Shown piece after piece: positions 1,446-63,676 of a DNA stretch of 64,000 bases. The translations under genes were made by a program, and so were the position numbers. How positions within the stretch are numbered: position 1 is the stretch's first letter; every line of letters starts with the position of its first letter. A model generated the notes under the pieces. That model was not told where the DNA came from. It saw nothing but the letters and a program-made list of their open reading frames with translations, and searched no databases. Source of the DNA: Chitinophagaceae bacterium (GTDB lineage Bacteria; Bacteroidota; Bacteroidia; Chitinophagales; Chitinophagaceae); the NCBI GenBank assembly GCA_947381435.1, contig CANCVE010000011.1:1-64000 (forward strand). Direction: 5' to 3'.

Positions 1446-1473
1446 ATTGATAATTGTTAATTGATAATTGTGA
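1446..1473. repeat. 7-bp phased tract AATTGAT/AATTGTT/AATTGAT/AATTGTG (4 units)
   Basis: Direct reading of the xylA-xylB intergenic region. Confidence 0.8.
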
Positions 1474-1586
1474 TTAAACTTAGTTTTATTGTTAAAACAA
1501 TCACCCTCTTCCATTCTCTTTTCTTTTTTCTTTATTTTTCTTAGTGCATCTTTCCGTCTTCGCGCCTTTGTGGCGTCCTTTACTCT

Positions 1587-1614
1587 CCATATCTCCTATC
1601 TAATATCTACAATC
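1587..1614. repeat. 7-bp phased tract CCATATC/TCCTATC/TAATATC/TACAATC (NNNNATC, 4 units)
   Basis: Direct reading; abuts the 3' end of xylB. Confidence 0.75.
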
Positions 1615-3090
1615 TCATAACTGCCTTTCAAGCAATTCTTTCCACACCAGATATTCCGAATCATAAGCCGCATTAACGGTGGGTTCTATCAAATTGAGTG
1701 GTTTTGCGTTGGCAAAAGCTTCTTTTTCGCTCGCAAATATCTTCGCACCAATGCCTGCACCCTTTGCCGCACCCACACTTCCGTCCACTTCGTACAGTTC
1801 TACGGGTACATTGGTGGCATTTACGAACGCACTGATAAATACATCGCTCAAAAACATGTTAGCCTTTCCTGCTCGTATCACCGATGGCAATATTCCGTTC
1901 TCTTTCATGATGTCCAATCCGTATCTAAACGAAAAAGCAATCCCTTCTTGCACCGCCCTGAAGATATGTGCTTCGGTATGTATGTTAAAGTTGATATTTT
2001 GGTAATGCGCCCCCACCGTTTTGTTGTTGAATATCCTTTCTGCACCATTCCCAAAGGGTAATACCGACAATCCTTCAGATCCGATGGGAATTTGTTTGGC
2101 CGCCTCGTTAATTAATGGATACGATTTATCGGCAGCAAGCAATTTTCTGGTAAAACTATTGGCAATGCCCGTACCATTAATACATAGCAGCGTACCAATC
2201 CTCGTTTTTGCAGCGGTATGGTTTACATGCGCAAAACTGTTTATTCTACTTTGCTTATCGTAACTTAAAGTATCACCAACACCATAAATAACGCCCGAAG
2301 TTCCTGCTGTTGCAGCTACTTCTCCGGGTTGTAACACATTGAGCGACAAGGCATTGTTGGGTTGATCGCCTGCTTTGTAGGTAACAGGAATATTTTTTGC
2401 AAGAGATAAGCGTTCTGCAACCTCGGCACTCAATAATCCGTGCTCGGTAAACACATCTTTGATGGTAGGGATGATGGATGGATTGAAACCATAATATTCC
2501 ATCACATCTTTCGACAATTCATTGTTCTTAAAGTCCCAAAAAACACCCTCCGATAGAGCAGAAGCCGACGTAGTGATGGTTCCTGTGAGCTTCATGGCAA
2601 TAAAATCGCCGGGCAGCATCACTTTATCAATCTGTTCATATATATGTGGTTCATTTTCCTTCACCCAAGCCAATTTACTCGCCGTAAAGTTGCCGGGAGA
2701 GTTCAATAAGTGCGAAAGGCATTGTTCTTCCCCAATCGTTTCAAAGGCTTTATTACCATAAGGCACCGCGCGGCTGTCGCACCATATAATACTATCGCGC
2801 AGCACGTTCCCATTTTTGTCTACACACACCAATCCGTGCATCTGGTACGCAATACCTATCGCCGCTATGTCTTTCGGGTTGTAACTATTGGTTGCATTGG
2901 CCTTCAATATTGCCTGTTGCACATGTTCCCACCACATTTCAGCACTCTGTTCTGCCCATCCACTCTGCAAAGAAGTAATGGCGGTCTCCGTTTCGGGGTA
3001 TTGAGCCGTAGTTATTGTTTTTTGTGTGGCTGCATCTACAATGGCAACCTTAATGGAAGAAGTACCTATATCTATTCCTAATAAAAGCAT
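1615..3090 (-). CDS. xylB: xylulokinase (FGGY family); likely start at internal Met (MLLLGIDIGTSS)
   Basis: FGGY signatures GIDIGTSSIK, KAGDQPNNALSLNVLQPGEVAATAGTSGV; next to xylA. The ORF track extends to 3159. Confidence 0.95.
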   Translation of the reverse strand: MLLLGIDIGTSSIKVAIVDAATQKTITTAQYPETETAITSLQSGWAEQSAEMWWEHVQQAILKANATNSYNPKDIAAIGIAYQMHGLVCVDKNGNVLRDSIIWCDSRAVPYGNKAFETIGEEQCLSHLLNSPGNFTASKLAWVKENEPHIYEQIDKVMLPGDFIAMKLTGTITTSASALSEGVFWDFKNNELSKDVMEYYGFNPSIIPTIKDVFTEHGLLSAEVAERLSLAKNIPVTYKAGDQPNNALSLNVLQPGEVAATAGTSGVIYGVGDTLSYDKQSRINSFAHVNHTAAKTRIGTLLCINGTGIANSFTRKLLAADKSYPLINEAAKQIPIGSEGLSVLPFGNGAERIFNNKTVGAHYQNINFNIHTEAHIFRAVQEGIAFSFRYGLDIMKENGILPSVIRAGKANMFLSDVFISAFVNATNVPVELYEVDGSVGAAKGAGIGAKIFASEKEAFANAKPLNLIEPTVNAAYDSEYLVWKELLERQL

Positions 3091-3417
3091 GACAAAAAAT
3101 CGTTTATTTTCGAGGTGTAAAAATAGATACTGAACATTTAATAGGATACCACTTTTCAATGCATTTAATATACTATTTTAACCATTATAAATAATTAAAT
3201 ATTAAATAATGATTAATAAGGTAACTATTTTTAATCAATGAATGAAAATAAATAAGACTCAATCGATAATATTATTAGATTGATTGGTAATTAATTATTG
3301 TACATTTTATAATACCCTAAACTGAATGATGCTCCTGCACTCCTAATCAACCACAACCACGCATTCATTATTATATTCTACATTCTGATAGATAAAAACA
3401 CCTCTAAGACCTTGTCA

Positions 3418-3501
3418 TTTTACTCACGAACAACGAATTTTCACTCACGGTTTACGAATTTTCAGTCACGAAAGATGCTTTTTCACTCACGGATTACGAA
3501 T
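3418..3501. repeat. 21-bp tandem array, 4 units (consensus TTTCACTCACGRWTTACGAAT)
   Basis: Units TTTTACTCACGAACAACGAAT, TTTCACTCACGGTTTACGAAT, TTTCAGTCACGAAAGATGCTT, TTTCACTCACGGATTACGAAT. Confidence 0.85.
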
Positions 3502-3525
3502 TTTTTATCAACGATTAAGGTTATT

Positions 3526-3646
3526 CGTGTCAAAAAACGTTGTTTTTCTCCATAATTTAAGTGTTTTTCAGCCTGAAAAGACCCAAAACGTGTCAAAAAA
3601 CGTTGTTTTTCACGAGAAAAACAACGTTTTTTGACACGTTTTAACT
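3526..3646. repeat. Three copies of a 23-bp word (two direct, one inverted) with 21-bp phasing; includes a perfect 27-bp-stem hairpin at 3585-3642
   Basis: CGTGTCAAAAAACGTTGTTTTTC at 3526-3548 and 3589-3611, inverted at 3616-3638; 3585-3611 is the exact reverse complement of 3616-3642 with a 4-nt loop. Confidence 0.9.
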
Positions 3647-3862: not shown

Positions 3863-4843
3863 ATGATTTTAGATACACACAATAGGATACATAATTACTT
3901 ACGCATTTCGCTTACCGATAATTGCAACCTGAGATGCTTTTATTGTATGCCCGAAGCTGACTACTCGTTTATGCCTTCGTCGCAAATGATGCAGGCATCA
4001 GAAATAAACGAGATTGCTGACACTTTTATTAAGCTGGGCACTACCAAAATAAGGCTTACTGGCGGCGAACCCTTGGTGCGAAAGGATGCGGACACCATCA
4101 TTAAAAACTTATCCTCCTACCCTATCAAACTTTCGCTGACAACAAATGGGGTAAGATTGCACGAATTTTTGGACACCATTCTTCAAGCAAAAATTACTTC
4201 GCTAAATGTTAGTCTGGATACGTTGCAAGCAGACAAATTTTTATTGGTCACCAAAAGAGATAACTTTAAAAGGGTTTGGGATAACATCAATTTACTACTA
4301 GAAAACAACATACGCGTAAAAGTGAATGTAGTGGTGATGAAGGGCGTAAATGATGGCGAAATATTGGACTTTATAGAGTGGACAAAACACGTACCTGTGC
4401 ACATTAGGTTCATAGAATTTATGCCTTTTACGGGTAATAGGTGGATGGATGATAAAGTTTTTACATGGCAAGAAATTTTGGGGACAATTGAGACTAAATA
4501 CCCTTGGATAAAGCTGCAAGACGAGGCTAACGACACAACTAAAAAATATATGGTGCCGGGACATGCAGGAACTTTTGCGGTGATAAGCACCATGACATCG
4601 CCTTTTTGCAGTACTTGCAACCGAATGCGCCTTACGGCAGATGGACGGATGAAGAACTGTCTTTTTTCGAAGGAAGAAACGGATTTATTGTCGGCATTGC
4701 GAAGAGGAGAAGATATTGTGCCGCTGATATTGGGTAATGTACAGGCAAAAGCTGCCGAAAGAGGCGGGCAATTTGTGGAAGACTTTCATGATCTGCAAGC
4801 AAAAAGAATAGAAAATAGAAGCATGATTGCAATAGGAGGATAA
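3863..4843 (+). CDS. moaA: GTP 3',8-cyclase (radical SAM)
   Basis: DNCNLRCFYCMP radical SAM motif, RLTGGEPLVR, C-terminal TSPFCSTCNRMRLTADGRMKNCLF cluster motif. Confidence 0.97.
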   Translation: MILDTHNRIHNYLRISLTDNCNLRCFYCMPEADYSFMPSSQMMQASEINEIADTFIKLGTTKIRLTGGEPLVRKDADTIIKNLSSYPIKLSLTTNGVRLHEFLDTILQAKITSLNVSLDTLQADKFLLVTKRDNFKRVWDNINLLLENNIRVKVNVVVMKGVNDGEILDFIEWTKHVPVHIRFIEFMPFTGNRWMDDKVFTWQEILGTIETKYPWIKLQDEANDTTKKYMVPGHAGTFAVISTMTSPFCSTCNRMRLTADGRMKNCLFSKEETDLLSALRRGEDIVPLILGNVQAKAAERGGQFVEDFHDLQAKRIENRSMIAIGG

Positions 4844-4846
4844 GCA

Positions 4847-4923
4847 GTTATTAGTTGTTAGTGTTTAGTGATTAGATTTTGGTGAAGAGTGAGCAGTAAA
4901 CAGTGAGTAGTGAACAGTAAGAT
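4847..4923. repeat. 7-bp phased tract, 11 units, about AGTNNNN
   Basis: GTTATTA GTTGTTA GTGTTTA GTGATTA GATTTTG GTGAAGA GTGAGCA GTAAACA GTGAGTA GTGAACA GTAAGAT in uninterrupted 7-bp register. Confidence 0.9.
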
Positions 4924-5245: not shown

Positions 5246-5350
5246 CTTGTGTTCTTTGTGATTAATTACCCAAAAAATAAAAAGACCTTGTGTTCTTTGT
5301 AAAAAGTCTTTGTGTTCCTTGTGGTTAAATTTTCTCTTTGTGGTTTATTA
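5246..5350. repeat. Degenerate CTTTGTGTTCYTTGTGGTTAAA-type repeats
   Basis: Repeated words CCTTGTGTTCTTTGT, CTTTGTGTTCCTTGTGGTTAAAT, CTCTTTGTGGTTT upstream of moeA. Confidence 0.6.
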
Positions 5351-5361
5351 AATAATTAATT

Positions 5362-6543
5362 ATGATTTCTGTAGGAGAGGCAAAAGATATTCTGGAAAAA
5401 AATGGAAAGGCACTGACACCAATTGTGATGCCCTTACATAAGGCCGTGGGATTGGTGCTGGCAGAAGACATTTTTGCTGCGGTAGATGTGCCAGGATTTA
5501 ACCAATCGGCGATGGATGGCTACGCTTTTAGGTTTGATGATTGGCAAGAAAACGAAAATTTGATCATCGCCGGAATGGTGCAGGCAGGAAGTGTGCTAGA
5601 AGGCGAACTAAAGTCAAAACAAGCCGTGAGAATATTTACCGGAGCTGCTGTGCCAAGCGAAACAGATACCGTTGTGATGCAAGAAAAGGTGGTAATTGAG
5701 GATGATAAACTACTAATAAACGACCCTTTACTCGAAAAAGGTGGTAACGTACGCTTAAAAGGTGGAGAAATAAAACATGGTGACCTAGCATTGCCTAAAG
5801 ACACCAAACTATCACCCGCCGGCATAGGTTTTTTGGCAGGAATAGGCATTAAAGAGGTATTGGTGTATCCTTTACCAAGAATAAAACTAGTAATTACGGG
5901 CAACGAACTGGTACAACCCGGATTACCACTACAAAATGGGCAAGTTTATGAGTCTAACTCGTATGCATTGTCGGCGGTTTTGCAACAAATGGGTATTCAA
6001 AATCTGTCAATTAGTTTTGCCAAGGATAATATGGAAGAATTAAAGTCGGTATTGGAGGCCGCTTTGCAAGAAGTAGATATTTTGCTGATAACAGGGGGTG
6101 TTAGTGTAGGCGATTATGATTTTGTGGCCAATACTTTAGCCGATTGTGGGGTGGAAAAACTGTTTCATAAGATAAAACAAAAGCCGGGTAAACCATTATT
6201 TGCTGGCAAACGGAATGACCAACTTATTTTCGGGCTGCCGGGCAATCCATCCTCGGTGCTAACTTGTTTTTATGAGTATGTGGTGCCTACAATAGCACAG
6301 ATGATGAACGCAAAAACGAGTATTATTCAAAAAATAAATCTTCCTTTAAGCAATGTTTACAGCAAGAATGCTGGATTAACCCACTTTTTAAAGGGGCATT
6401 GCGCCAATGGGAAAGTTACGCTACTAACAGGGCAAGAATCTTATAAACTTAGTTCATTTGCTACGGCCAATTGCTTGGTTTGCCTAGCAGAAAACGGCAC
6501 TCACTATCATGCAGGAGATATTGTGGAGGTACATTTGTTTTAG
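5362..6543 (+). CDS. moeA: molybdopterin molybdotransferase
   Basis: NQSAMDGYAF, FTGAAVPSETDTVVMQE, TGGVSVGDYDF, GLPGNPSSVLTCFYEYV motifs. Confidence 0.96.
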   Translation: MISVGEAKDILEKNGKALTPIVMPLHKAVGLVLAEDIFAAVDVPGFNQSAMDGYAFRFDDWQENENLIIAGMVQAGSVLEGELKSKQAVRIFTGAAVPSETDTVVMQEKVVIEDDKLLINDPLLEKGGNVRLKGGEIKHGDLALPKDTKLSPAGIGFLAGIGIKEVLVYPLPRIKLVITGNELVQPGLPLQNGQVYESNSYALSAVLQQMGIQNLSISFAKDNMEELKSVLEAALQEVDILLITGGVSVGDYDFVANTLADCGVEKLFHKIKQKPGKPLFAGKRNDQLIFGLPGNPSSVLTCFYEYVVPTIAQMMNAKTSIIQKINLPLSNVYSKNAGLTHFLKGHCANGKVTLLTGQESYKLSSFATANCLVCLAENGTHYHAGDIVEVHLF

Positions 6544-6653
6544 GTTTTAAGTTCTAGGTATTAAGTGGTAAGTATTAGGTATTACGTTGTACGTTCTAAG
6601 TTTTAAGTTGTACATTTTAGGTATTATGTTGTAAGCATTAGGTATTGAGTATC
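6542..6653. repeat. 7-bp phased tract, 16 units (about ANGTNNT), also periodic at 21 bp
   Basis: AGGTTTT AAGTTCT AGGTATT AAGTGGT AAGTATT AGGTATT ACGTTGT ACGTTCT AAGTTTT AAGTTGT ACATTTT AGGTATT ATGTTGT AAGCATT AGGTATT GAGTATC. Confidence 0.92.
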
Positions 6654-27592: not shown

Positions 27593-28774
27593 TTAAACCT
27601 TCACAGTTGCAGCCAACCAAGCCATTACACCGATGCCAGTTTCGATGGCGCTTTCATCTATATTGAACTTTGGGGTATGTACATTATGAACAATTCCCTG
27701 TGCTTCATTACGTACTCCAAGTCGGTAAAAACAGCCTGGAACTATCTGTGTGTAATAGCCAAAATCTTCAGCACCCATACGTATTTCGGTTTCTTCTACC
27801 TTTTCTTTTCCCATATAAACATCTGCCTGTTGCCAAGCCGCTTCTGTAAATGCGGGATCATTATCAACCGTAGGGTAACCAACATCTATCTTAAAATCTA
27901 TTTCTGCACCCATCGATTCTACCAAACCAACCGCTTGTTTGGTCATCAATTCATGCGCTTTAAAACGCCAAGCCTCATCCATTGCCCTAAATGTGCCCAT
28001 CATTTTCACCTCACTCGGAATCACATTAGTGGTATGTCCGCCCTGAATACTACAAATACTTAACACAGACGGAGAAAGCGGATTACAGTTTCTACTGATA
28101 ATCTGTTGCAGACTAACAATCATCTGCGAAGCAATTAAAATAGTATCTGCCGTTAGATGAGGTGCCGCCGCATGACCACCCTTGCTGCGGATGGTAATAT
28201 ATATTTCATCGGCACTTGCCATCACCCTACCCTTTCTAAAACTAAGTTTGCCAACTTCTAAACTAGGGTTTACGTGTAAGGCAATGATGCCTTGAGGACG
28301 GGGATTATCCAACACGCCTTCCTTAATCATATAGCTAGCACCACCAGGGTTGCGTTCTTCACCAGGTTGAAAGATGAGTTTTATGGTTCCTTCAAAGTCG
28401 TCTTTTATTTCATTCAATATCTTGGCTGCACCCAATAAAACCGTGGTATGCACATCGTGACCGCAGGCATGCATCACTCCCTGATTCTTCGATTTATAAG
28501 GCACATCATTTTCTTCGTCAATGGGCAAGGCATCCATATCGGCACGTAAAGCGATAATACGGCTCTCTGGATTCTTTCCTTTTATCAATCCAACAACTCC
28601 TGTTGTAGCTTTTATCTCGAAGGGAATACCAATGGCAGTCAGTTTATCCTGCACAAATTGACTAGTATTAAACTCTTGGTAACTCAATTCTGGATTGGCA
28701 TGAATGTGCCTCCTGATAGCAATACTTTCTGGAGCATAGTCAGCAGCCAGTTGTTTTATTTTTTGTAATAACAT
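27593..28774 (-). CDS. M20-family amidohydrolase/peptidase
   Basis: RRHIHANPELSYQEF, ALRADMDALPIDEENDVPYKS, GVMHACGHDVHTTVLLGAA, MGAEDFGYYTQ. Confidence 0.93.
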   Translation of the reverse strand: MLLQKIKQLAADYAPESIAIRRHIHANPELSYQEFNTSQFVQDKLTAIGIPFEIKATTGVVGLIKGKNPESRIIALRADMDALPIDEENDVPYKSKNQGVMHACGHDVHTTVLLGAAKILNEIKDDFEGTIKLIFQPGEERNPGGASYMIKEGVLDNPRPQGIIALHVNPSLEVGKLSFRKGRVMASADEIYITIRSKGGHAAAPHLTADTILIASQMIVSLQQIISRNCNPLSPSVLSICSIQGGHTTNVIPSEVKMMGTFRAMDEAWRFKAHELMTKQAVGLVESMGAEIDFKIDVGYPTVDNDPAFTEAAWQQADVYMGKEKVEETEIRMGAEDFGYYTQIVPGCFYRLGVRNEAQGIVHNVHTPKFNIDESAIETGIGVMAWLAATVKV

Positions 28775-28781
28775 CTTTTTT

Positions 28782-28844
28782 AATGTTTAGTGATTAATGT
28801 TTAAAGATTAATATCTAATCACTAAACATTAATCATTAATTACT
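28782..28844. repeat. 7-bp phased tract (9 units) containing a 16-bp perfect inverted repeat
   Basis: AATGTTT AGTGATT AATGTTT AAAGATT AATATCT AATCACT AAACATT AATCATT AATTACT; 28781-28796 is complementary to 28816-28831. Confidence 0.88.
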
Positions 28845-29260
28845 CACTGATCATTATTCATCGTATATTCAACCGCATCTTCTACCACATAAACTCCTTG
28901 TGGATATATTTTACTCAGTTGCTGACGGAACTTCTCAGCATCATCTCTATTAATAAAATTGCCTATCCTTACTTTAAAATAAGGAGAGTTATAGGTAAGA
29001 TAAGCCTTTTGATCAGTAAACTTGGAGAGAACTTCAGACTTAACCTTATTTGCCTGATCTCTATTGGTAGTACTTAGAATTTGAATTCTGTAACCCTTGT
29101 AAAGTCCAGAGCTAGTCATCATACTTGTACGCTTATTTATTTCTGCTTGCTTATCGGAAAGTACATCCAAACGAGGATCCTTTCTTACAATGATGGTATC
29201 ATTGGCTAACAAATGACTACTTGCTATTAAAATTGCGATGAGAAATACGATGTGTTTCAT
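28844..29260 (-). CDS. SPOR-domain secreted protein
   Basis: Signal peptide; GYRIQILSTTNRDQANKVKSEVLSKF...YFKVRIGNFINRDDAEKFRQQLSKIYPQGVYVVED. Confidence 0.82.
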   Translation of the reverse strand: MKHIVFLIAILIASSHLLANDTIIVRKDPRLDVLSDKQAEINKRTSMMTSSGLYKGYRIQILSTTNRDQANKVKSEVLSKFTDQKAYLTYNSPYFKVRIGNFINRDDAEKFRQQLSKIYPQGVYVVEDAVEYTMNNDQ

Positions 29261-29298: not shown

Positions 29299-29374
29299 AG
29301 TCGAAAGTGAAAAGTCGGAAGTCGAAAGTAGGAAGTAAAGAACGGCTCACAACTTTTGACTAACGACTCACTAC
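29299..29374. repeat. pair of inverted 7-bp phased tracts (AGTNNNN x6, then NNNNGAC/TAC x3)
   Basis: AGTCGAA AGTGAAA AGTCGGA AGTCGAA AGTAGGA AGTAAAG ... TTTTGAC TAACGAC TCACTAC. Confidence 0.85.
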
Positions 29375-30112
29375 CTAAAGTAAAAGTGCCGCAATTGTAT
29401 AATCGGCAATGAGAATTAATATACATGAAACCACAACAGCACTTGTACTGGCACGACCAATTTCGAGAGAGCCACCTTTAACATTAAAGCCATAATAGGC
29501 CGGAATACTGCTTACAATGAAAGCAAATGCGTAAGATTTGTAGAAAGCAACCGTAATGTTATAAATGTTTAAGTTTTGGCGAAGACCAATATCATATAAA
29601 TCTGGGGCAAGTATACCGCTAAGGTTACCCGCCATCTTACCACCCCAGATACCTAAGAAAGCAGAAATAACAATTAGCCCTGGAATGACCACTAAGCCAG
29701 CGGCTATCTTAGGGAGTATCAAATAACTTTTTGGATTAATCCCCATTATTTCTAAGGCATCTATTTGCTCGCTAATGCGCATATTACCCAGTTCGCTCGC
29801 AATCTTACTTCCTATAACACCCGCCAAAACAATACTTAGTACGGTAGGAGAAAGTTCTAGAATCATACTATCCCTTACAATCTGCGCAACGGTTGTCATA
29901 GGAATTAGGGGACTCACTAACTGATAGGCCGTTTGTACCGTTGATACCGCACCTAAAAACAAGGAGATGATAACAACAATTGGCAATGCTCCAAAACCAA
30001 TTTCAGCACATTGATGCATGAATTCGTTCCAGTACATCTTGTTGTTTTCAGGTTTTGTAAACATGCCTTTCAGCATCAATATATAAGCGCCTATATGAGA
30101 AAATAACTTCAT
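29375..30112 (-). CDS. mlaE: MlaE-family ABC lipid transporter permease
   Basis: GFGALPIVVIISLFLGAVSTVQ, VRDSMILELSPTVLSIVLAGVIGSKIASELGNMRISEQIDALEIMGINP. Confidence 0.94.
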   Translation of the reverse strand: MKLFSHIGAYILMLKGMFTKPENNKMYWNEFMHQCAEIGFGALPIVVIISLFLGAVSTVQTAYQLVSPLIPMTTVAQIVRDSMILELSPTVLSIVLAGVIGSKIASELGNMRISEQIDALEIMGINPKSYLILPKIAAGLVVIPGLIVISAFLGIWGGKMAGNLSGILAPDLYDIGLRQNLNIYNITVAFYKSYAFAFIVSSIPAYYGFNVKGGSLEIGRASTSAVVVSCILILIADYTIAALLL

Positions 30113-30121
30113 TATTTTTTT

Positions 30122-30228
30122 AGTTGATAGTCAAAAGTCGATAGTTACAAGTAACATGAGTCTTACTATAAAAACAAATATATAGATTAGACTCGTTACT
30201 TACGACTATCGACTCTTGACTTATTACT
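30122..30228. repeat. pair of inverted 7-bp phased tracts (AGTNNNN x5 / NNNNACT x6)
   Basis: AGTTGAT AGTCAAA AGTCGAT AGTTACA AGTAACA (30122-30156); TTAGACT CGTTACT TACGACT ATCGACT CTTGACT TATTACT (30187-30228). Confidence 0.88.
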
Positions 30229-30234
30229 TCTTAA

Positions 30235-32571
30235 CTAGCTTTTGTCTTTCATCCTTCCCCAATATTCAGAAGCATTAACTATTGGTTCAATATCCGTTTT
30301 GCATTTCAATTGCGCATCAATTACTGCAACCAATGCCATGTTTACAATACTTCTAACAGTACTTCCTAACTGCAATACATGTACAGGTTTTTTCATACCT
30401 AATAGTATTGGTCCAATAGCATCTGCACCACCTATCTCCTTCATCAGGTTGTAGGCTATATTTCCAGCAGTAAGGTTAGGGAATATCAGCACATTTACAT
30501 CGTGTCCTACCAACTCACTAAAAGGATAGTTATCCTTTAATATTTCATTATTGAAAGCCAAACTAGCTTGCATTTCTCCATCAATAATCAATGTTGGATT
30601 TTGTTCCTTTACCAGCTTTGTTGCTTTAGCCACCAAATTAGCTTCATCACTATTACTGCTACCAAAATTGCTGTAACTAAGCATTGCAATACGTGGAGTG
30701 ATGTTCAGGTTACGAACTTCGCGCGCTACCATCACCGTAATATCTGCCAATTCTTCGGCAGTAGGATTAAAGTTTACAGTAGTATCTGCCAAGAAAAGAG
30801 GACCTTTCTTCGTTAATAATAAATACATTCCTGCAATCTTCTTCACCCCATCTTCTGTTCCTATAATATTCAATGCAGGTCTGATTGCATCTGCATAATT
30901 TCTGGTCAGTCCACTTATCATTGCATCAGCCTCACCAGTTTCTAGCATCATACAACCATAATGGTTTCTATCCTTCATTATCTTAACGCTCTCGTACTGA
31001 TTTACTCCTTTACGACTTCTTTTAGAGAAATACAGCTCACCAAACTCAGTCCTTTTTGCATCCATACTTTCAGAGCGAGGATCGATGATTGGCAAATCTG
31101 CAATATCAATTTCATTCTCTTCCGCAATCTTTTTTATCTTGTTTTCATCACCCAAGAGTATCGGATAAGCAATTTCTTCATCATATACAATGCTTGCCGC
31201 TTTCAATATCTTAATGTTATCAGCTTCGGCAAACACTATACGCTTAGGCTCTTTCCTTGCTTTACTACTAATTGCTCGCAACAATTGGTTATCTAGGCCA
31301 AGTCTTTTATCCAATTCTACCTTGTACGCATCCCAGTTTTCTATTTTCTTCTGTGCCACACCACTTTCTATTGCAGCCTTAGCAACTGCTGGGGCCACCG
31401 TACTCAACAAACGAGGATCTAATGGTTTAGGAATAATATATTCAGTTCCAAAAACGATATTCTTCTGGTTATAAGCCATGTTTACCAAATCTGGCACAGG
31501 CGACTTTGCCAATTCAGCTAAAGCCAATACAGCTGCCAACTTCATTTCTTCATTAATCTTGGTTGCTCTCACATCTAATGCACCCCTAAAAATGTACGGA
31601 AACCCAAGTACATTGTTTACCTGATTAGGATAATCGCTTCGCCCGGTTGCCATGATTATGTCTTTACGAGCAGCAATTGCAATCTCATAAGTAACTTCTG
31701 GATCAGGGTTAGCCATTGCAAATACTACTGGGTTTGGTGCCATGCTCTTCAGCATCTCCGATGTAACCACGTTTGGCACACTTAATCCAATAAATACATC
31801 GGCACCAATAAAGGCAGATTCAAAAGTCCAATCGGCACTTTTTGAAGCGAATAATAGTTTATTAGCCGATAATCCTTCCCTTCCTACATGAATAATACCT
31901 TTACTATCAAACATCAGGAAGTTTTCGGGCTTCGCGCCCAATGCCACATAAAGTTTGCAACAAGACATAGAAGCCGCACCCGCACCATTAACGATAATGC
32001 GGACATCCTGAATACTTTTACCTTGAATTTCTAGTGCATTCAGTAAAGCAGCCGAACTAATGATAGCTGTACCATGTTGGTCATCATGCATAATAGGAAT
32101 CTTGCACTGCTCCTTTAGCTTTTCTTCTATATAAAAACATTCAGGGCTTTTAATATCTTCCAGATTAATTCCACCAAACGTAGGTTCTAAAGCTTTTACT
32201 ATCTGAACAAACTTCTCTGGATCTTTTTCATTAATCTCAATATCAAAAACGTCTATATCTGCAAATATTTTGAACAATACCCCTTTTCCTTCCATTACAG
32301 GTTTACCTGCTTCCGGCCCTATATCTCCCAATCCGAGTACGGCAGTACCATTACTTATCACAGCCACCAAGTTTCCTTTGGCAGTATATTTATATACATC
32401 TTCAGGGTTGTGGAATATTTCCATACAAGGAGCAGCAACTCCGGGACTGTAAGCAAGGCTAAGGTCGCGTTGTGTCTTAGCTTCTTTGGTTGGTATTACT
32501 TCTATTTTGCCCGGTCTTCCGCTGGCGTGGTACTCTAATGCCTGTTCCCATTTAGCATCTTTCTTGTCCAT
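30235..32571 (-). CDS. maeB: NADP-dependent malic enzyme with C-terminal phosphotransacetylase-like domain
   Basis: [44 protein letters not shown]-terminal PTA-like region [16 protein letters not shown]...[20 protein letters not shown]. Confidence 0.94.
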
Positions 32572-32885
32572 AAAACATTTTTTAGTTAGCAATTAATATT
32601 TGGCGTTTTCTATTTAGTGCCTATTATAGTTTCAGTGTAACTGTTAAAATAATTGGCATCAACCAAACCAAGGGTGCAAAGTACAGGTAAATGCGAAAAG
32701 CAAGGGTGACTATTCTCAGTAAGCGTTTTCGGAATTGTTAATTTATTGCTTCCGAAAAGAATTATAAAGGTTTCAGAAATTAGGAATTGAATAATAACGG
32801 TGCTTTTAGAAATAGCGATTCGGACAAGCTACGCTCGATATCATTACCAAAATAAGATTGAATGCCATTAGCTATCTAAGGCAAA

Positions 32886-33095
32886 GTTTGTAGTAAACTG
32901 GAGTATTTTGAAAGTAAAATGGAGAGTTTTGAAAGTAAAATGGAAGGTTTTGAAAGTAGAATGGGTGGGATTTAAAGTAAAATGGAAGGTTTTTAAAGTA
33001 AAATGGAGGGGATTTAAAGTAAAATGGAGAGTTTTGAAAGTAGAATGAATGGTTTTGAAAGTAAAATGGAGAGTTTTGGAAGTAAAATGGGTGGA
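32886..33095. repeat. 21-bp tandem array, about 10 units, consensus TTTGAAAGTAAAATGGAGAGT
   Basis: Ten consecutive 21-bp units read directly; first unit degenerate (14/21 identity to consensus); followed by a short inverted copy ACTTTCAAAAC. Confidence 0.92.
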
Positions 33096-34082: not shown

Positions 34083-34163
34083 AGTCGAAAGTCAAAAGTA
34101 TAAAGTATTTCTAATCGAAGCTAAAACACACAACTTTTGACTTTCAACTTTCCACTTTTGACT
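34083..34163. repeat. pair of inverted 7-bp phased tracts (AGTNNNN x4 / NNNNACT x5)
   Basis: AGTCGAA AGTCAAA AGTATAA AGTATTT; CACAACT TTTGACT TTCAACT TTCCACT TTTGACT. Confidence 0.88.
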
Positions 34164-34165
34164 TC

Positions 34166-35374
34166 TTACAATACTTCCACCTGATTCCTCAATAAATCCT
34201 CAAACACATCCCTTCTTCTAATCAAATGAAAAGCCTCATCCTTCACCAAAACCTCTGCTGGTTTGTAGCGGCTATTAAAGTTACTACTCATTTCAAATCC
34301 GTAGGCGCCCGCATTGGCAAAAACCAAATAGTCGCCCTCCCTTACTTCATGCAGTTTTCTGTCCCACGCAAACGTATCTGTCTCACAGATATTTCCTACC
34401 ACCGCATAGTGTTTTTCTTCTCCCTCAGGATTGGATATGTTGCTGATGTTATGGTGTGCATCATAAAACATTGGGCGTATCAGATGATTAAATCCACTAT
34501 TTACACTCGCAAAATGAATAGACTTTGTCTCTTTTAAAACATTTACCTGCGTAATTAAATAACCTGCACCACTCACCAGATACTTTCCCGGCTCAAACCA
34601 AACCTGCAAAGGCTTGCCATTGGGATTAGGATGATTGGCAAATGCCTCACCTACCTTTTGTGCCAATAATGCAATGTCGGTTTCATGATCTCCTTTTTTG
34701 TAAGGCACTTTAAATCCACCGCCCAAGTCGATAAACTCAAGTTCATTAAACAGAGGAATTATATCGAACAAAACTTCAATACCTTTAATAAATACTTCCA
34801 CATCCTTAATCTCGCTACCGGTATGTATATGTAACCCCTGCATAAAGAGATTGGTTTCCTTGATGATAGCCAATAGTTCATCTATCTGATCGATAGGAAT
34901 ACCAAATTTGCTTTTATCATGACCTGTAGATATTTTCAGGTTGCCACCCGCCATGATGTTGGGACGCAAACGCACACCTACAGGATAGCTATGCCCGTAC
35001 TTTTCGCCAAACTTTCTGAGGTTAGAAAGACTATCTATATTGATATGAACGCCCAAACTTTGCGCTTCTTCTATCTCATCGAAGCCAATACCATTGCTGG
35101 TATATAATATCCTCTCTGGCGGAAAACCTGCGTGTAAGGCAAGCTTTACTTCGTTGATAGAACTACAATCAACGTTGGAACCCAACTGCAAAAAGTGTTT
35201 GAGAATATTGATATTGGTTAAAGCCTTACAAGCATAGAATATCTTTACATCTTGCCCTGCAAAGGCGGAAGTAAGGTTATTATACTGCTGGGCCATTTTT
35301 TCTGCGTGATAAACATATACTGGCGTGCCAAAATGTTGCGCAATGCTTGTAAGCTGTTGATTTGATAAAGTCAT
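34166..35374 (-). CDS. lysA: diaminopimelate decarboxylase
   Basis: FYACKALTNINILKHFLQLGSNVDCSS, HIHTGSEI, IDLGGGFKVPY, EPGKYLVSGAGYLIT, GNICETDTFAWDR. Confidence 0.95.
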   Translation of the reverse strand: MTLSNQQLTSIAQHFGTPVYVYHAEKMAQQYNNLTSAFAGQDVKIFYACKALTNINILKHFLQLGSNVDCSSINEVKLALHAGFPPERILYTSNGIGFDEIEEAQSLGVHINIDSLSNLRKFGEKYGHSYPVGVRLRPNIMAGGNLKISTGHDKSKFGIPIDQIDELLAIIKETNLFMQGLHIHTGSEIKDVEVFIKGIEVLFDIIPLFNELEFIDLGGGFKVPYKKGDHETDIALLAQKVGEAFANHPNPNGKPLQVWFEPGKYLVSGAGYLITQVNVLKETKSIHFASVNSGFNHLIRPMFYDAHHNISNISNPEGEEKHYAVVGNICETDTFAWDRKLHEVREGDYLVFANAGAYGFEMSSNFNSRYKPAEVLVKDEAFHLIRRRDVFEDLLRNQVEVL

Positions 35375-44172: not shown

Positions 44173-45819
44173 ATGCCTAAGGACAATTCAATTAAATCGG
44201 TACTTATCATTGGTTCAGGGCCAATTATCATTGGACAAGCTTGCGAGTTTGACTATTCTGGTACACAAGCAGCACGTAGTATTCGTGAAGAAGGAATAGA
44301 AGTTATTTTGATAAATAGCAACCCTGCTACTATCATGACAGACCCAATGATGGCTGATAGGGTTTACTTACTTCCATTGACAGTAGAGAGTATTGAAAAG
44401 ATTCTACAAGAAAATAAGATTGACGCTGTTTTGCCTACAATGGGTGGACAAACTGCCTTGAATCTTTGTAAAGAAGCTGACGAACAAGGAATATGGGAGA
44501 AGTATAACTGCCGTATGATTGGGGTAGATGTTGCAGCAATCGATACTGCTGAGGACAGAGAAAAGTTCCGCCAATTGATGATGAAGATTGGTATTGCTGT
44601 AGCGCCAAGTCATGTTGCTAATAGCTTTTTAGAGGGAAAAGAATTTGCACAGAAAATAGGTTTCCCATTGGTTATTCGTCCTTCGTTTACTTTGGGTGGT
44701 ACTGGTGGAGGCTTTGTTCATACTAAAGATGATTTGGATGCTGCCCTTGAAAGAGGATTGAAAGCTAGTCCAATTCATGAAGTATTGGTTGAAAAAGCAG
44801 TATTGGGATGGAAAGAATATGAACTTGAATTATTGCGTGATAAGAATGATAATGTAGTAATTATCTGTACTGTAGAAAACCTTGATCCAATGGGTGTTCA
44901 CACGGGTGATAGTATTACAGTGGCTCCGGCAATGACATTGAGTGATACTGCTTTTCAGGATATGCGTAACAAAGCAATGTTGATGATGCGTAGTCTTGGA
45001 AACTTCCAAGGTGGTTGTAATGTGCAGTTTGCACAGAATCCTCAAACAGAAGAATTGATTGCCGTAGAAATTAATCCACGTGTAAGCCGTTCATCAGCAT
45101 TGGCCAGTAAGGCTACTGGTTATCCAATTGCTAAGATTGCTGCAAAGTTGGCCATAGGATATACACTTGATGAATTGAAAAATCAAATCACTAAGACTAC
45201 CTCAGCTTATTTCGAACCTGCATTGGATTATGTAATCGTAAAGATTCCTCGTTGGAACTTTGATAAGTTTAAAGGGGCAAACGATACACTTGGCTTGCAA
45301 ATGAAGAGTGTGGGTGAGGTTATGGCCATTGGAAGAAGCTTTAATGAGGCATTGCAAAAGGCTTGTGTTAGCTTAGAAAATGGTGCTATCGGTTTAGGCT
45401 ACTACGGTAAAAGCTTGATGAAGAGCGAAGAGATTGTAGAATATATAAAGACGCCGAAGTGGGATAGAATATTCCGTATAAAGGATGCTTTAATGCAAGG
45501 TTCTACCATTAAAAGTATTGCTCAGGCAACAGGCATTGACCGTTGGTTCTTGTATCAGATTAGAAAGATTTGTGACATAGAAAAGGAAGTTGCTAACTAT
45601 CGTTTGGAAACATTACCTGATGACTTATTGAAAGATGCTAAGAAGAATGGCTTTAGCGATGAGCAAATTGCCAAGATATTGCAAGGCACTTGCACAGACG
45701 ATCAGGTGTACGAAAAACGTAAGAGCCTTGGTATTACTCGTGTTTACAAAATGGTTGATACTTGTAGCGCGGAGTTCGAAGCAAAGACACCTTACTTCTA
45801 TAGTACTTTCGAGAACTAA
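44173..45819 (+). CDS. carB: carbamoyl-phosphate synthase large subunit, N-terminal half only
   Basis: [89 protein letters not shown]; ends [25 protein letters not shown], the normal boundary before the second ATP-grasp half. Confidence 0.95.
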
Positions 45820-45826: not shown

Positions 45827-45961
45827 AGATATTAACTATCAAATATTAGTTATAAGTTAAAAGAAAAGGCCCTTGAAGCAAATGTTTCAAGGGCCTTTTC
45901 TTTTTTTGTATGCTAATTACGTTATCTTATAACTCCTAGTTAATATCTCATATCTATCTAC
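45827..45961. repeat. inverted pair of 7-bp phased tracts flanking a terminator
   Basis: AGATATT AACTATC AAATATT AGTTATA AGTTAAA (45827-45861); TTATAAC TCCTAGT TAATATC TCATATC TATCTAC (45927-45961). Confidence 0.8.
45863..45907 (+). terminator. rho-independent terminator after carB
   Basis: GAAAAGGCCCTTGAA-GCAAATGT-TTCAAGGGCCTTTTC then TTTTTTT. Confidence 0.92.
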
Positions 45962-47207: not shown

Positions 47208-47328
47208 ACACATAGGCATATAGACACATAGAAACTATAAAAAAGCTGAATGATTTAAGTTAGCATAAGTTATATCTATTGTTTTCTGACACTTTCTCAA
47301 TAGCTATGTGACTTTAATGCCTATGTGG
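47208..47328. repeat. inverted pair of CACATAGGCA-type repeats
   Basis: ACACATAGGCATATAGACACATAG at 47208-47231; CTATGTGACTTTAATGCCTATGTGG at 47304-47328. Confidence 0.75.
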
Positions 47329-47930: not shown

Positions 47931-48007
47931 TTAGATATTAGATATGAGATAGTAGAAATGTGTTGCTATGTTTAATAACTAATATCTACTATCTCATATC
48001 TCAAATA
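47931..48007. repeat. inverted pair of 7-bp phased tracts, including a 17-bp perfect stem
   Basis: TTAGATA TTAGATA TGAGATA GTAGAAA / TAATATC TACTATC TCATATC TCAAATA; AGATATGAGATAGTAGA is complementary to TCTACTATCTCATATCT. Confidence 0.85.
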
Positions 48008-50819: not shown

Positions 50820-50893
50820 AATTGTTGTTTAAAAAATTAAAAATTATTCTGTCTATCTACAAGTTCGTAAAAAATCAAAAAACACTGCTTGTC

Positions 50894-51103
50894 TCAATGT
50901 TATTACCACTAACGTCATTTTTGTCACTACTTGTCTCAAAGTTGTTACTACTAACGTCATTGTTGTCACTGCTTGTCTCATTTTTGTTACCACTAACGTC
51001 ATTGTTGTTACTACTTATCTCAATGTTGTTGTCACTAACGTCATTTTTGTTACTACTAGTCTCATTTTTGTTGTCACTAACGTCATTGTTGTTACTACTT
51101 GTC
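50894..51103. repeat. 21-bp tandem array, 10 units as five 42-bp dimers
   Basis: Alternating units CAWTGTTGTTACYACTAACGT and CATTKTTGTYACTACTTGTCT. Confidence 0.92.
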
Positions 51104-57841: not shown

Positions 57842-57871
57842 ACCACATAGGCACAGTAGGCACATAGTGGG
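57842..57871. repeat. CACATAGGCA-type repeat
   Basis: ACCACATAGGCACAGTAGGCACATAGTGGG. Confidence 0.7.
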
Positions 57872-58306: not shown

Positions 58307-58338
58307 TTATCTATGTTTTCTTTCTTTATTCTTAAGGA

Positions 58339-58362
58339 AACTATGTGTCTATGTGCCTATGT
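58339..58362. repeat. CACATAGGCA-type repeat, inverted relative to 57842
   Basis: CTATGTGTCTATGTGCCTATGTGT; reverse complement is 23/24 identical to 47208-47231. Confidence 0.75.
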
Positions 58363-58369
58363 GTTGAAG

Positions 58370-59627: not shown

Positions 59628-59662
59628 TTCAACTCTTGACTTTCGACTTTCAACTCTCGACT
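59628..59662. repeat. 7-bp phased tract NNNNACT (5 units)
   Basis: TTCAACT CTTGACT TTCGACT TTCAACT CTCGACT. Confidence 0.85.
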
Positions 59663-59665
59663 AAT

Positions 59666-61009
59666 CTAAAGCTTGCCTATTGCCTTTTGATAATCTACTT
59701 TAGCGATGATGGCACTGTACAATGCATTAATATAATTAGTCTGAGCAGTAACAAGATCCGTTTGAGCCGCAGTTATTTCCGTATTACTACCAGTACCTAC
59801 TTCAAACTTCTTTTTTGTCTGATTATACACTGTCTCAGCTAATACCATATTTTTCTTCTGAAAGTCAATGGTAGCAACTGCCGTCTTATAATTTAGGGTT
59901 GCTTGCTCCACGTCACTATCAATGGTGTGTTTCAGGTTATCAATGTTGTTCTCTGTTTGCTTCAATTCAATTTTAGACTGTTTCACTTTTGCGTCTTTTG
60001 CGAAACCATCAAATATTGGAATAGAGATATTCAATCCTACCCAAGATGCGGGATACCAATCTCCCTTTTGCAAAAAGTCGAAACTGTGCCTGTACGCTTG
60101 CTTTGCATAAGTACCACTAACCGCAACAGTAGGCAAATACGAAAGTTGGTAACGTTTTATGTTGTATTCGTTAAGTTTCTTACCAAGCATGGCATATTGG
60201 TATTCCTTTCTATCACTGTATTGGTAAGGAGCATCTTGCAAAATACCATCCTTTATCTGTGCTTCGCTTAGGGTATCAGTCAATTCTAACACCTCCTTTG
60301 CAGGCATACCAATCAATGTTTTCAAGCCCAGATACCCTATGTTTATGCTGTTTACAATGCTAAGTTTCTGTGTTTTTAGGTTAGTTACTTGCACATCAAT
60401 CTTGTCTACATCTAGCTTTTCGGCAAAGCCAGTTTTAAACAACTCCTTGGCATCGTGTTGTAGTTTTTCAAGCCTAGAAATGTTGGCATCTATCAAGGCA
60501 ATCTGTGTTTTACTCACTACCAATTGATAATATACCTTCTCCACATTGGTTTTAATTACCTCTTCCGTTACTTCAATGTTTTTAGATTGAAAATCGATAG
60601 AAGCCTTTCTTGCTTGCAATCCTACAAATACCTGCCCATCAAAAAGCAACTGTTGCAACTGCAAAGACGCTGTAGAATTGTAGTTGAGTCCAAAATTTAC
60701 AGCTTGATCTGTTGGGCCAAATGCTCCTGCTGGTATTACCTGTGTAGGGATATCAAAGTACTTAGTTGCAGCAATATTACCAGATAACGAAGGCATTGCC
60801 GCTGCCGTAATACCACGATTTACTTGCTTCTGAATGTCCAGATTCAACAAAGCATTCTTTACTTGCGTATTGTTCTTTTTTGCATACTCTACCGTTTGCT
60901 GCAACGTAAAGCTGTGTGTATTAGTTGTTTGCGTCTGTGCAAATGCACCAGATGCCACCAACAGCAGCACATACATCAACGCTGTTTTTACGTGTTTGTG
61001 TGTCATCAT
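59666..61009 (-). CDS. TolC family outer membrane efflux protein
   Basis: FTLQQTVEYAKKNNTQVKNALLNLDIQK...GTGSNTEITAAQTDLVTAQTNYINALYSAIIAKVDYQKAIGKL. Confidence 0.93.
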   Translation of the reverse strand: MMTHKHVKTALMYVLLLVASGAFAQTQTTNTHSFTLQQTVEYAKKNNTQVKNALLNLDIQKQVNRGITAAAMPSLSGNIAATKYFDIPTQVIPAGAFGPTDQAVNFGLNYNSTASLQLQQLLFDGQVFVGLQARKASIDFQSKNIEVTEEVIKTNVEKVYYQLVVSKTQIALIDANISRLEKLQHDAKELFKTGFAEKLDVDKIDVQVTNLKTQKLSIVNSINIGYLGLKTLIGMPAKEVLELTDTLSEAQIKDGILQDAPYQYSDRKEYQYAMLGKKLNEYNIKRYQLSYLPTVAVSGTYAKQAYRHSFDFLQKGDWYPASWVGLNISIPIFDGFAKDAKVKQSKIELKQTENNIDNLKHTIDSDVEQATLNYKTAVATIDFQKKNMVLAETVYNQTKKKFEVGTGSNTEITAAQTDLVTAQTNYINALYSAIIAKVDYQKAIGKL

Positions 61010-61626: not shown

Positions 61627-61859
61627 TTCTTTTAAAATCTGCCGCGAAACTAAGGAAACTTTTTTTGTTACCAAAGTTTCCGCTTAATTATTTTTATTTT
61701 TTATAGAAAATTTAGAATGCTCAATTCAAAGTTGACGGATAAGACAAAAAAATATTTTATCTGTCTAAAGAAAAAAGAAAGAATATTTTATCCATAATTT
61801 ATTGATTGAACAAGCGCTTTCGTTAAATACTATTGATTCAAAATGCCTAATCAAACACA

Positions 61860-61943
61860 GCATTTGGCAAAGCAAACGTGGCATTTGGTAAAGCAAATGC
61901 GGCATAAGGCAAAGCAAATACGGCATAAGGCAAAGCAAATGCG
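61860..61943. repeat. 21-bp tandem array, 4 units GCATAAGGCAAAGCAAATGCG
   Basis: Four units, contiguous and in phase with the next array. Confidence 0.9.
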
Positions 61944-62153
61944 ACGGAAGTTCAAGCTTATACGACGGAAGTTCAAGCTTTTGCGACGAAAGTCCAAACT
62001 TATGCGACGAAAGTTCAAGCTTACGCGACGGAAGTTCAAACTTATGCGACGGAAGTTCAAACCTATGCGACGGAAGTTCAAACTTATGTGACGGAAGTTC
62101 AAACTTATGCGACGGAAGTTCAAGCTTTTGCGACGGAAGTTCAAACTTATGCG
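61944..62153. repeat. 21-bp tandem array, 10 units ACGGAAGTTCAAACTTATGCG
   Basis: Ten uninterrupted units read directly. Confidence 0.95.
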
Positions 62154-62292
62154 GCATAAGTTCTGTCGTGAAACACTAACTAACCGTTAGCTTTTGCCAT
62201 ATTAACCTGCTTAATGTGAATAAACCTCGGCTTTTCCACCATCCCTACTAATCTTATTGGGAAGTAGACCTTTGGTTTGTTATTTTTACACA

Positions 62293-63024
62293 ATGGCACT
62301 TCAACAATTAGACTTATTCGGTAACCCCATTCCTGCTTCTAAGCAAGAAGAGGCAAAGGTTTCCACTACCAATAAAACAATTTCTCCTAAAAAAGAAAAA
62401 CCGCTTTCTGCACCTGTTATTCAAGAATCGAAAGCAGTTACCACTGATGATACAATTAAAGATCAAGCAACAGATTCCAATCAAAATCAAGTAGTGTATA
62501 GCGATAGTCAGATTAGGGTAAAAATAAAACCTAAAAAAGAGACTGTTGAAACCGAAGAAGACGCTTTTCCCAAAAAGAAAAAGCGTGGACGTAAGAAAGG
62601 AGCAGTACGGAAAAATGTAGCCAAGGGAAGTAAGATGAAGGTGAACGGTAAGGAAGTAGAAAATAAATCGAATTACCTTAATATACCCGATGATGAAACC
62701 TTGAATAAAAAATTGTATTGGGGCATTTCAGAAGTAGCCGTCATGTTTGGTGTAGCCAACTCGTTAATTCGCTTTTGGACAAACGAATTTGCAGTGATAA
62801 CGCCAAGAAAAGGGGTAGGAAGCCACCGTTTTTATCGTACTGAAGACATTAGAAAGCTAGAACTAATCTACGATTTAATAAGGGTAAAACAATTTAGTAT
62901 TGATGGTGCTAGGAAATACCTGACAAATAATAAGGAAGAAATAGATGTGCAAACAGAGGTAATGCAATCCCTTACCAAGTTTAAAACCTTTTTGATGGAA
63001 CTTAAAACAAGCATTGGCGAATGA
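62293..63024 (+). CDS. MerR family transcriptional regulator with long basic N-terminal extension
   Basis: KLYWGISEVAVMFGVANSLIRFWTNEFAVITPRKGVGSHRFYRTEDIRKLELIYDLIRVKQFSIDGARKYL; start reassigned to MALQQLDLFG. Confidence 0.88.
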   Translation: MALQQLDLFGNPIPASKQEEAKVSTTNKTISPKKEKPLSAPVIQESKAVTTDDTIKDQATDSNQNQVVYSDSQIRVKIKPKKETVETEEDAFPKKKKRGRKKGAVRKNVAKGSKMKVNGKEVENKSNYLNIPDDETLNKKLYWGISEVAVMFGVANSLIRFWTNEFAVITPRKGVGSHRFYRTEDIRKLELIYDLIRVKQFSIDGARKYLTNNKEEIDVQTEVMQSLTKFKTFLMELKTSIGE

Positions 63025-63548
63025 GATATTTTATTGGATTAATAGTGGTAATAGTTTTTGCAATGTCCTGCATTCAGCCTTTAAAGACATTAAAGATAAA
63101 CTATCAAGTGAAGGAAGATAAAGGTAATAAGATGCTTTTTGGGGTAATAAACCGAAGCTTGATAGCCAATGACACCGCCTTTGGATGGTTTAAGGAAAAC
63201 ATGAAATATGGTCAACCCGATGCTGCGGCAGTGAATGCTTTTAAACAGAAAAAAGACAAATTCAGCTTGCTTGTTTTTGGCGGCACGTGGTGTGAGGACA
63301 CCCAAAATTTGTTGCCTAAGTTTTACCAATTGATAGATGCAAGCGGTTTTCCCGAAAATAAAATCAACCTTTTAGCAGTTGACAGGAAAAAGGAAACCGT
63401 CAAAAATTTTCATTTCATCTATAAGATAACCAATGTGCCCACTTTTATTGTTTTGAAGAATGGAATTGAAGTAGGAAGGGTAAAGGAATATGGAACTAAA
63501 GGAGACATCACCAAGGAATTGGGTGAAATAGTTGCTGGCATTAAATAG
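63021..63548 (+). CDS. thioredoxin family protein
   Basis: LLVFGGTWCEDTQNLLPKFYQLIDASG...KITNVPTFIVLKNGIEVGRVKEYGTKGD; start overlaps the MerR stop. Confidence 0.88.
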   Translation: MRYFIGLIVVIVFAMSCIQPLKTLKINYQVKEDKGNKMLFGVINRSLIANDTAFGWFKENMKYGQPDAAAVNAFKQKKDKFSLLVFGGTWCEDTQNLLPKFYQLIDASGFPENKINLLAVDRKKETVKNFHFIYKITNVPTFIVLKNGIEVGRVKEYGTKGDITKELGEIVAGIK

Positions 63549-63641
63549 TTAGAATTTAAGGCTGTTGAAAGTTTTTCTTTTAATATTAAAAGGCTTACAA
63601 GCAATGGATTCTAGCCCCTTTTATACCTCATTTCTTATCCA

Positions 63642-63676
63642 AACTCATAACTCATCATTTATAACTCATAACTATT
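63642..63676. repeat. 7-bp phased tract AACTCAT (5 units)
   Basis: AACTCAT AACTCAT CATTTAT AACTCAT AACTATT. Confidence 0.85.

What the first reader, a model, noticed from the sequence alone, without database searches (positions are those of the whole stretch)
1446..63676. Genome-scale class of 7-bp phased intergenic tracts (3 fixed, 4 free positions)
At least twelve intergenic loci (1446, 1587, 4847, 6542, 28782, 29299, 30122, 34083, 45827, 47931, 59628, 63642) keep an exact 7-bp register for 4-16 units. Usually only three positions are conserved (AGTNNNN/NNNNACT, NNNNATC, or ANGTNNT) and four drift. A decaying slippage microsatellite should lose register as well as letters; here letters vary while spacing is held. 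All loci are outside genes. Heptanucleotide STRRs are known in heterocystous cyanobacteria, but those are near-identical units. Inference: either a repeat-binding factor reads the 7-bp phase, or an unusual templated or slippage process makes them.
Basis: partly seen in the sequence, partly recalled or inferred. Interest (0 to 1): 0.85.

Follow-up and report, generated by a model that had tools for sequence, protein, structure and literature searches.

The report
Seven-base repeats lining gene ends
This freshwater Chitinophagaceae genome carries well over a hundred short DNA tracts with an exact seven-base rhythm that start right at gene stop codons, point outward from genes and often come in mirror-image pairs; the kind was known in other bacteria, but its varied spellings, precise placement and rapid replacement between relatives were not reported in the papers found.

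Summary
All 12 loci pass their own shuffles (p<=0.001). In 1.2 Mb of this genome the 175 kb of intergenic DNA holds 148 period-7 tracts against 2 in shuffled DNA; no other period from 4 to 13 exceeds 13. The organism is a Chitinophagaceae bacterium (Bacteroidota), not a cyanobacterium.

"Three fixed, four free" is partly right: conservation across the seven columns is graded, but the best-kept triplet is AGT/ACT 2.8 times more often than expected. New findings: AGT tracts point outward from genes, 79 to 9 at 3' ends, starting a median of 1 bp after the stop codon. Many gaps have an AGT arm and a mirrored ACT arm, giving stable predicted hairpins. Tracts draw on a few genome-wide spellings. In relatives the slot is kept (17/27 versus 2/37) while the spelling may be wholly replaced. 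Register is not inviolate.

Closest known: TAACTGA heptamers (Beggiatoaceae, cyanobacteria, Bacteroidetes) and GGGANTN heptamers (Xanthomonas), which show the same polarity. Best explanation: seven-base-step copying (slippage, template switching, exchange between tracts), confined by coding sequence and held in a translation-safe orientation. A binding factor or a mobile hairpin is not excluded. New variant of a known kind.

The parts
1444..1470 (.). TAATTGA/TAATTGT heptads beside the start of the 107-1438(-) gene
   Evidence: score 16, p<0.001; an almost identical array in the same slot in G003
1590..1615 (-). TATCTNN heptads running up to the stop codon of the 1615-3159(-) carbohydrate kinase gene
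   Evidence: for the gene
4846..4918 (+). AGTNNTT block then AGTNANC block, in the same phase (offset 42 bp), 2 bp after the stop codon of the 3863-4843(+) MoaA-like gene
6537..6652 (+). 16 heptads (GTNNTAR spelling); the first contains the TAG stop of the MoeA-like gene 5362-6543(+)
   Evidence: score 39; tract absent from the orthologous gap of G003
28779..28843 (.). hairpin with TTTAATG/TTTAGTG arms filling the gap between 27593-28774(-) and 28844-29260(-); replaced by different spellings in G003 and G005
   Evidence: fold -20.9 kcal/mol, z=-7.2; orthologues
29299..29337 (+). left AGT arm (AGTCGAA spelling)
29352..29368 (-). right ACT arm ending at the stop of the MlaE gene 29375-30112(-)
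30122..30152 (+). left AGT arm, in front of the start of the MlaE gene
   Evidence: retained in register in G003 with letter changes
30191..30228 (-). right ACT arm after the stop of the 30235-32592(-) malic enzyme/PTA gene; pairs with the left arm
   Evidence: fold -40.9 kcal/mol, z=-6.6
34083..34106 (+). left AGT arm, in front of the 33261-34034(-) ABC gene
34133..34163 (-). right ACT arm, 2 bp from the stop of the 34166-35374(-) decarboxylase gene; both arms absent in G005
45830..45863 (+). TATTANN heptads after the stop of 44173-45819(+); an inverted arm lies near 45930-45957
   Evidence: sequence
47931..47956 (+). left arm TTAGATA/TTAGATATGAGATA
47973..48006 (-). right arm TAATATC/TACTATC/TCATATC; hairpin with the left arm
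   Evidence: fold -27.7 kcal/mol, z=-5.8
59632..59662 (-). ACTCTTG/ACTTTCG/ACTTTCA heptads, 3 bp from the stop of 59666-61009(-)
63642..63673 (.). AACTCAT heptads

Best explanation
The tracts are one class of heptameric gene-border repeats. SHOWN: period 7 only; AGT outward from genes, starting at stop codons; a few spellings shared by unlinked loci; mirrored arms; slots kept between species while spellings are replaced. INFERRED: DNA copying moves in 7-nt steps (slippage of a nascent strand, template switching between the mirrored arms, and copying from another tract elsewhere), with the AGT/ACT triplet as the short anchor that keeps the phase. This multiplies, shuffles and overwrites units mostly without losing register. 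Coding constraint stops the growth exactly at the stop codon. The outward orientation is kept because only there are the repeats translation-safe: after a stop codon they supply further stops in all frames, and before a start codon they contain almost no start codons. No dedicated factor is required.
For: Period 7 only, 148 versus 2. Polarity at 3' ends 79:9, median 1 bp from the stop, 90% within 10 bp; at 5' ends 35:8. AGT/ACT is the best-kept triplet in tracts found without reference to it, 34 versus 12. Within a spelling, units are shared about as much between unlinked loci as between the two arms of one locus. The two arms of a locus share a spelling (0.49 versus 0.33), but mirrored unit order is not significant (p=0.12), as shuffling in phase predicts. 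Whole-unit differences in the L019_17962 left arm, with an almost identical loop and an identical ACT run in the right arm. Stops in all three frames within 30 nt of the stop codon: 56% with array, 14% without, 23% if the flank is reversed. Start codons per 30 nt in 5' arms: 0.30 as found, 1.69 reversed, 0.93 in other 5' flanks. Indels 'mostly in 7 nt increments' between two Cyanothece strains (PMC4679880).
Against: No mutation was watched happening. Dispersal of a spelling to unlinked loci needs exchange between loci, for which no direct trace (donor-recipient junction) was found. The translation-safe argument should not apply to the Xanthomonas GGGAATC repeats, which contain neither stop nor start codons in either orientation (read from the sequence) yet are reported with the same polarity (PMC4692102). 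ORF starts were called mechanically. Slots kept while spellings change would also be expected if the slot itself were under selection.
Confidence: 0.4

Rival explanations
1. Repeat-binding factor: a protein reads AGU (after stop codons) or ACU (before start codons) every 7 nt in RNA, or the duplex at gene borders, and selection keeps the triplet and the phase while the other letters drift. MacGregor proposed S1-, Csp- or CsrA-type regulators for TAACTGA repeats.
For: AGT is the preferentially kept triplet; the fifth position is a purine in 278 of 294 units; G165 holds a 114-bp array in which every 7-nt step carries AGT while the four letters between vary widely; exact placement at stop codons; slots retained.
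Against: Spelling families without AGT occupy the same slots; only 25% of tracts show significantly uneven columns; AGT-bearing slots are empty in close relatives, for example L011_8657 with 96% identical flanks; no candidate protein was sought or found.
Confidence: 0.22
2. Dispersed mobile hairpin elements: each spelling is a family of short hairpins mobilised in trans, inserting at gene ends and replacing one another.
For: Spelling families recur at many loci in three species; polarity is fixed within a family; both arms change together between species; composite slots with a second family inside one arm pair; hairpins more stable than controls (mean z -4.1 versus -1.7).
Against: The centres between arms are mostly unrelated and several hold native terminators or promoter-like sequence; single arms are common; no target-site duplication was recognised; the RAYT-like genes are not bordered by heptads but by other palindromes.
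Confidence: 0.2
3. Ordinary independent heptanucleotide microsatellites that arose by slippage and are decaying.
For: Period-7 repeats are over-represented in many bacteria and were linked to the polymerase footprint (Mrazek 2007, as cited in PMC4692102 and PMC4679880); many columns fit random substitution; register breaks exist.
Against: Independent seeds would not share a few spellings, one dominant triplet, one polarity relative to genes, a start at the stop codon, or mirrored partner arms.
Confidence: 0.08
4. Alternative transcript 3' ends: the hairpins act as weak bidirectional terminators or RNA 3'-end protectors, selection keeps a hairpin in the slot, and the spelling hardly matters.
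For: Enrichment at 3' ends and between convergent genes; stable folds; slots kept with spellings replaced; canonical terminators somewhat rarer at array ends, 6/64 versus 83/506.
Against: The terminator difference is small; several arrays flank a canonical terminator; arms also sit in front of start codons and between divergent genes; single arms cannot form the hairpin; no T tract.
Confidence: 0.1

Closest known systems
TAACTGA heptamer direct repeats (MacGregor 2015, PMC4679880; Beggiatoaceae, cyanobacteria, five Bacteroidetes)
   Same: Intergenic heptads; [quoted passage not shown] stops in all three frames; 7-nt indels between strains.
   Different: There one exact heptamer dominates and related heptamers are rare, mostly upstream of start codons, with one inverted repeat reported. 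Here many spellings share AGT, mostly after stop codons, with mirrored arms; no exact TAACTGA doublet in 175 kb of intergenic DNA.
GGGANTN heptamers of Xanthomonas and GGGGAYT of Nostoc (Rehm 2015, PMC4692102)
   Same: [quoted passage not shown] 70-75 mirrored pairs per Xanthomonas genome; extensive length and sequence variation between relatives at the same genes.
   Different: G-rich, quadruplex-forming, one spelling studied per genome. Here A+T-rich with several spellings, and the start lies at the stop codon (median 1 bp, against an average of 28 nt).
STRR heptanucleotide repeats of heterocystous cyanobacteria (Calothrix; reported in the Introduction of PMC4692102)
   Same: 7-bp tandem units, dispersed, intergenic.
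REP/RAYT palindromes
   Same: Dispersed intergenic palindromes, often near gene 3' ends.
   Different: No heptad structure, and they border their transposase genes; the RAYT-like genes here have their own separate palindromes.

Membership tests
TAACTGA direct repeats (PMC4679880) | two or more exact tandem TAACTGA units | tested here: not met
   0 TAACTGATAACTGA on either strand in 175 kb of intergenic DNA; 22 and 23 single copies
TAACTGA direct repeats (PMC4679880) | ACT-reading strand toward a start codon, reverse after a stop codon | tested here: met
   outward AGT 79:9 at 3' ends and 35:8 at 5' ends
TAACTGA direct repeats (PMC4679880) | stops in all three frames | tested here: met
   56% of array 3' flanks have stops in all frames within 30 nt versus 14% without array; stops lie on the AGT strand here
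Xanthomonas/Nostoc G-rich heptamers (PMC4692102) | G-tract unit able to form quadruplexes | tested here: not met
   unit AGTNRNN, A+T-rich
Xanthomonas/Nostoc G-rich heptamers (PMC4692102) | paired arms in convergent orientation | tested here: met
   33 two-armed gaps in 1.2 Mb
Xanthomonas/Nostoc G-rich heptamers (PMC4692102) | same gene slots in relatives, sequence variable | tested here: met
   17/27 versus 2/37 slots, p=7e-7; 9 of 25 shared pairs no more alike than random slots
long simple sequence repeats / STRR | near-identical tandem units | tested here: not met
   graded column conservation 0.97-0.50; best TRF period is often 14, match 66-100%
REP/RAYT elements | elements flank their Y1 transposase gene | tested here: not met
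   six RAYT-like loci examined; heptads do not border the transposase genes, other palindromes do; one locus (L241) has an array about 100 bp beyond the gene
intrinsic terminators | G+C-rich stem followed by a T tract | tested here: not met
   arms are A+T-rich; canonical terminators at 6 of 64 array ends

The most novel reading that the evidence does not exclude
A trans-acting system, templated or site-directed, writes heptad hairpins at gene borders from a small genome-wide vocabulary and rewrites both arms of a slot at once, with AGT as its recognition triplet; comparable systems with other vocabularies run in Xanthomonas, Nostoc and Beggiatoaceae.
Probability: 0.12. Interest if true: 0.9.

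Novelty: new variant of a known kind. Interest (0 to 1): 0.6.

Why it matters
Heptameric repeats have been noted piecemeal in distant phyla with no accepted cause. This genus shows many spellings under one grammar, fixed polarity, start at the stop codon, and turnover fast enough to compare species 80-90% identical, so the old question (slippage footprint, binding factor or mobile hairpin) becomes testable by strain comparison.

Tried and rejected
RAYT/REP mobilisation: seven Y1_Tnp loci examined, none with heptads bordering the transposase gene. Exact mirror complementarity as the maintained feature: not significant, although some loci (30113-30234, L137_18162) are near-perfect hairpins. Conserved centre of a MITE-like element: only a few TTAGT loops share AGCGATT. 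The 21-bp arrays as higher-order heptads: internal lag-7 identity is only marginally raised. A purine-outward rule: contradicted by the ACCGTTN family, which has the opposite purine bias (inspection). Cyanobacterial origin: rejected. Chance: rejected.
Full report
WHAT IS THERE. The window is part (contig C11) of a 4.88-Mb, 231-contig genome. Its proteins (malic enzyme/PTA fusion, MlaE, SPOR domain) and its nearest public relatives (Chitinophagaceae genomes assembled from metagenomes, MlaE 87-95% identical) place it in the Bacteroidota.

GENOME SCALE. I read 1.2 Mb of the genome (59 stretches including the window, 175 kb intergenic by a simple ORF caller). Lag-7 identity is 0.305 against 0.286 in dinucleotide-preserving shuffles (z=24), with a harmonic at 14; lags 5, 6 and 8-13 stay within 3.5 sd; coding DNA shows nothing comparable at lag 7. 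Lags 21, 42 and 63 are also high, but that is mainly a separate class of long 21-bp arrays. A scan for ungapped period-p tracts finds 148 for p=7 (2 in shuffles) and at most 13 for any other p. Four copies of one triplet spaced 7 apart occur 410 times in intergenic DNA (2.6 in shuffles), 156 of them ACT/AGT.

GRAMMAR. In runs of four or more, units read AGT-N-R-N-N: the fifth position is a purine in 278 of 294 units, with 66 different tetramers. There are families: TTAGTNN, CAGTNAN, AAGTYRN, AAGTNNT, AGTNATG, and others without AGT such as TTTAATG, AATTGAT, GGTTACTG and ACCGTTN. In tracts found without reference to AGT the conservation of columns is graded and only moderately more uneven than random substitution, but the best-kept triplet is AGT/ACT in 34 cases where about 12 are expected. 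So 'three fixed, four free' describes what is shared across families; within a family about five positions are fixed.

PLACEMENT. AGT runs point outward from genes. At 3' ends 79 are outward and 9 inward, with the first AGT a median of 1 bp from the stop codon and 90% within 10 bp; at 5' ends 35 outward and 8 inward. In many cases the stop codon is itself the first piece of the array (TAG-TTGT-TAG-TGAT; AG-TGA-AC-AGT). Gaps therefore read: stop, (AGTNNNN)n, unique centre, (NNNNACT)n, next gene; the centre may carry a native terminator or promoter-like sequence. The same polarity appears in a 400-kb sample of G005 (15:1 at 3' ends), across 80 Chitinophagaceae loci (12:4 and 6:0) and in several loci of other genera of the order. 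The pattern (ACTNNNN)4ACT occurs in 188 of 299 genomes of the order and 659 times in this one, against 36 for the reversed control. In G165 one 114-bp array carries AGT at every 7-nt step with highly varied tetramers between.

ARMS AND HAIRPINS. Array-bearing gaps fold better than shuffles (mean z -4.1, controls -1.7). The two arms of a gap share a spelling (0.49 versus 0.33 for arms of different gaps), but permuting the units of one arm hardly changes the fold (p=0.12), and within a spelling the vocabulary is shared about as much between unlinked loci as within a locus. The hairpin is thus mostly a consequence of one vocabulary written in two orientations, with some near-perfect exceptions (30113-30234; L137_18162).

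EVOLUTION. In orthologous gaps of two or three species of the same genus (flanks mostly 75-95% identical), a gap with an array here has an array there in 17 of 27 cases; a gap without, in 2 of 37 (p=7e-7). Gap length was not matched, so part of this could reflect room for an array. Of 25 shared pairs, nine are no more alike than random pairs of slots, for example L144_12781 with three species and three spellings, 28775-28843, and L158_10260 with 91/90% identical flanks. Others keep the spelling with letter changes in register (30113-30234), with whole-unit differences (L019_17962), or with a 1-bp register break (L144_3747 in G003). Presence is labile: L011_8657, with 96% identical flanks, is empty in the relative.

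HOW IT MOST LIKELY WORKS. See Best explanation. The orientation test was made here: after stop codons the arrays give stops in all three frames within 30 nt in 56% of cases (14% without array, 23% when the flank is reversed), and before start codons they hold 0.30 start codons per 30 nt (1.69 when reversed, 0.93 in ordinary 5' flanks). This is a property of the spellings, so it explains why the orientation is tolerated, not why period 7. Period 7 in unrelated phyla suggests a property of the copying machinery, as Mrazek proposed (cited in PMC4692102 and PMC4679880); that is inference.

WHAT IS KNOWN. MacGregor 2015 (PMC4679880) and Rehm 2015 (PMC4692102) describe heptamer repeats with the same polarity in Beggiatoaceae, cyanobacteria, a few Bacteroidetes, Xanthomonas and Nostoc, with no function shown. 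The present class differs in its many spellings around AGT, its start at stop codons and its documented slot-by-slot replacement, so I call it a new variant of a known kind.

LIMITS. Genes were called by ORF length, so 5' ends are approximate. Only 25% of the genome was read. Pairs of relatives are not independent. The families were defined by eye and simple rules. The call on presence uses fixed thresholds. The G165 array was found by searching for AGT, so its perfect AGT is partly ascertained.

Noticed in passing
window 3417-3504, 32892-33090, 50884-51100, 61866-62153: A second class of intergenic tandem arrays with 21-bp (or 42/63-bp) units of up to about 10 copies; 68 such arrays in 1.2 Mb. 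They are not clearly built of heptads.
   Followed up: partly
L239-L244: RAYT-like Y1 transposase genes (about 185-220 aa) bordered by their own palindromic repeats, e.g. CATCTAGCGCAGGCC and CACAAGTGACACACTTGCGGTAGCAGCGAG.
   Followed up: partly
window 47208-47232, 57844-57867, 58341-58364: Short 8-9-bp arrays of ACACATAG/CTATGTGT.
   Followed up: no
window 1513-1575 and 5286-5330: Dispersed non-coding repeats with many copies in G002, G003 and G005.
   Followed up: no
L136 17507-18096: Long intergenic region with repeated (pseudo)palindromic ATCTGTATACAGAT/ATCGGTATACCGAT motifs, 589 bp here and 1180 bp in G005 with 95% identical flanks.
   Followed up: no
L337 (genome G207) 1491-1908: GGGAGTA heptads directly after a TAG stop codon with a mirrored CATCCCT arm, a G-rich spelling resembling the Nostoc and Xanthomonas repeats but inside the Bacteroidota.
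   Followed up: no
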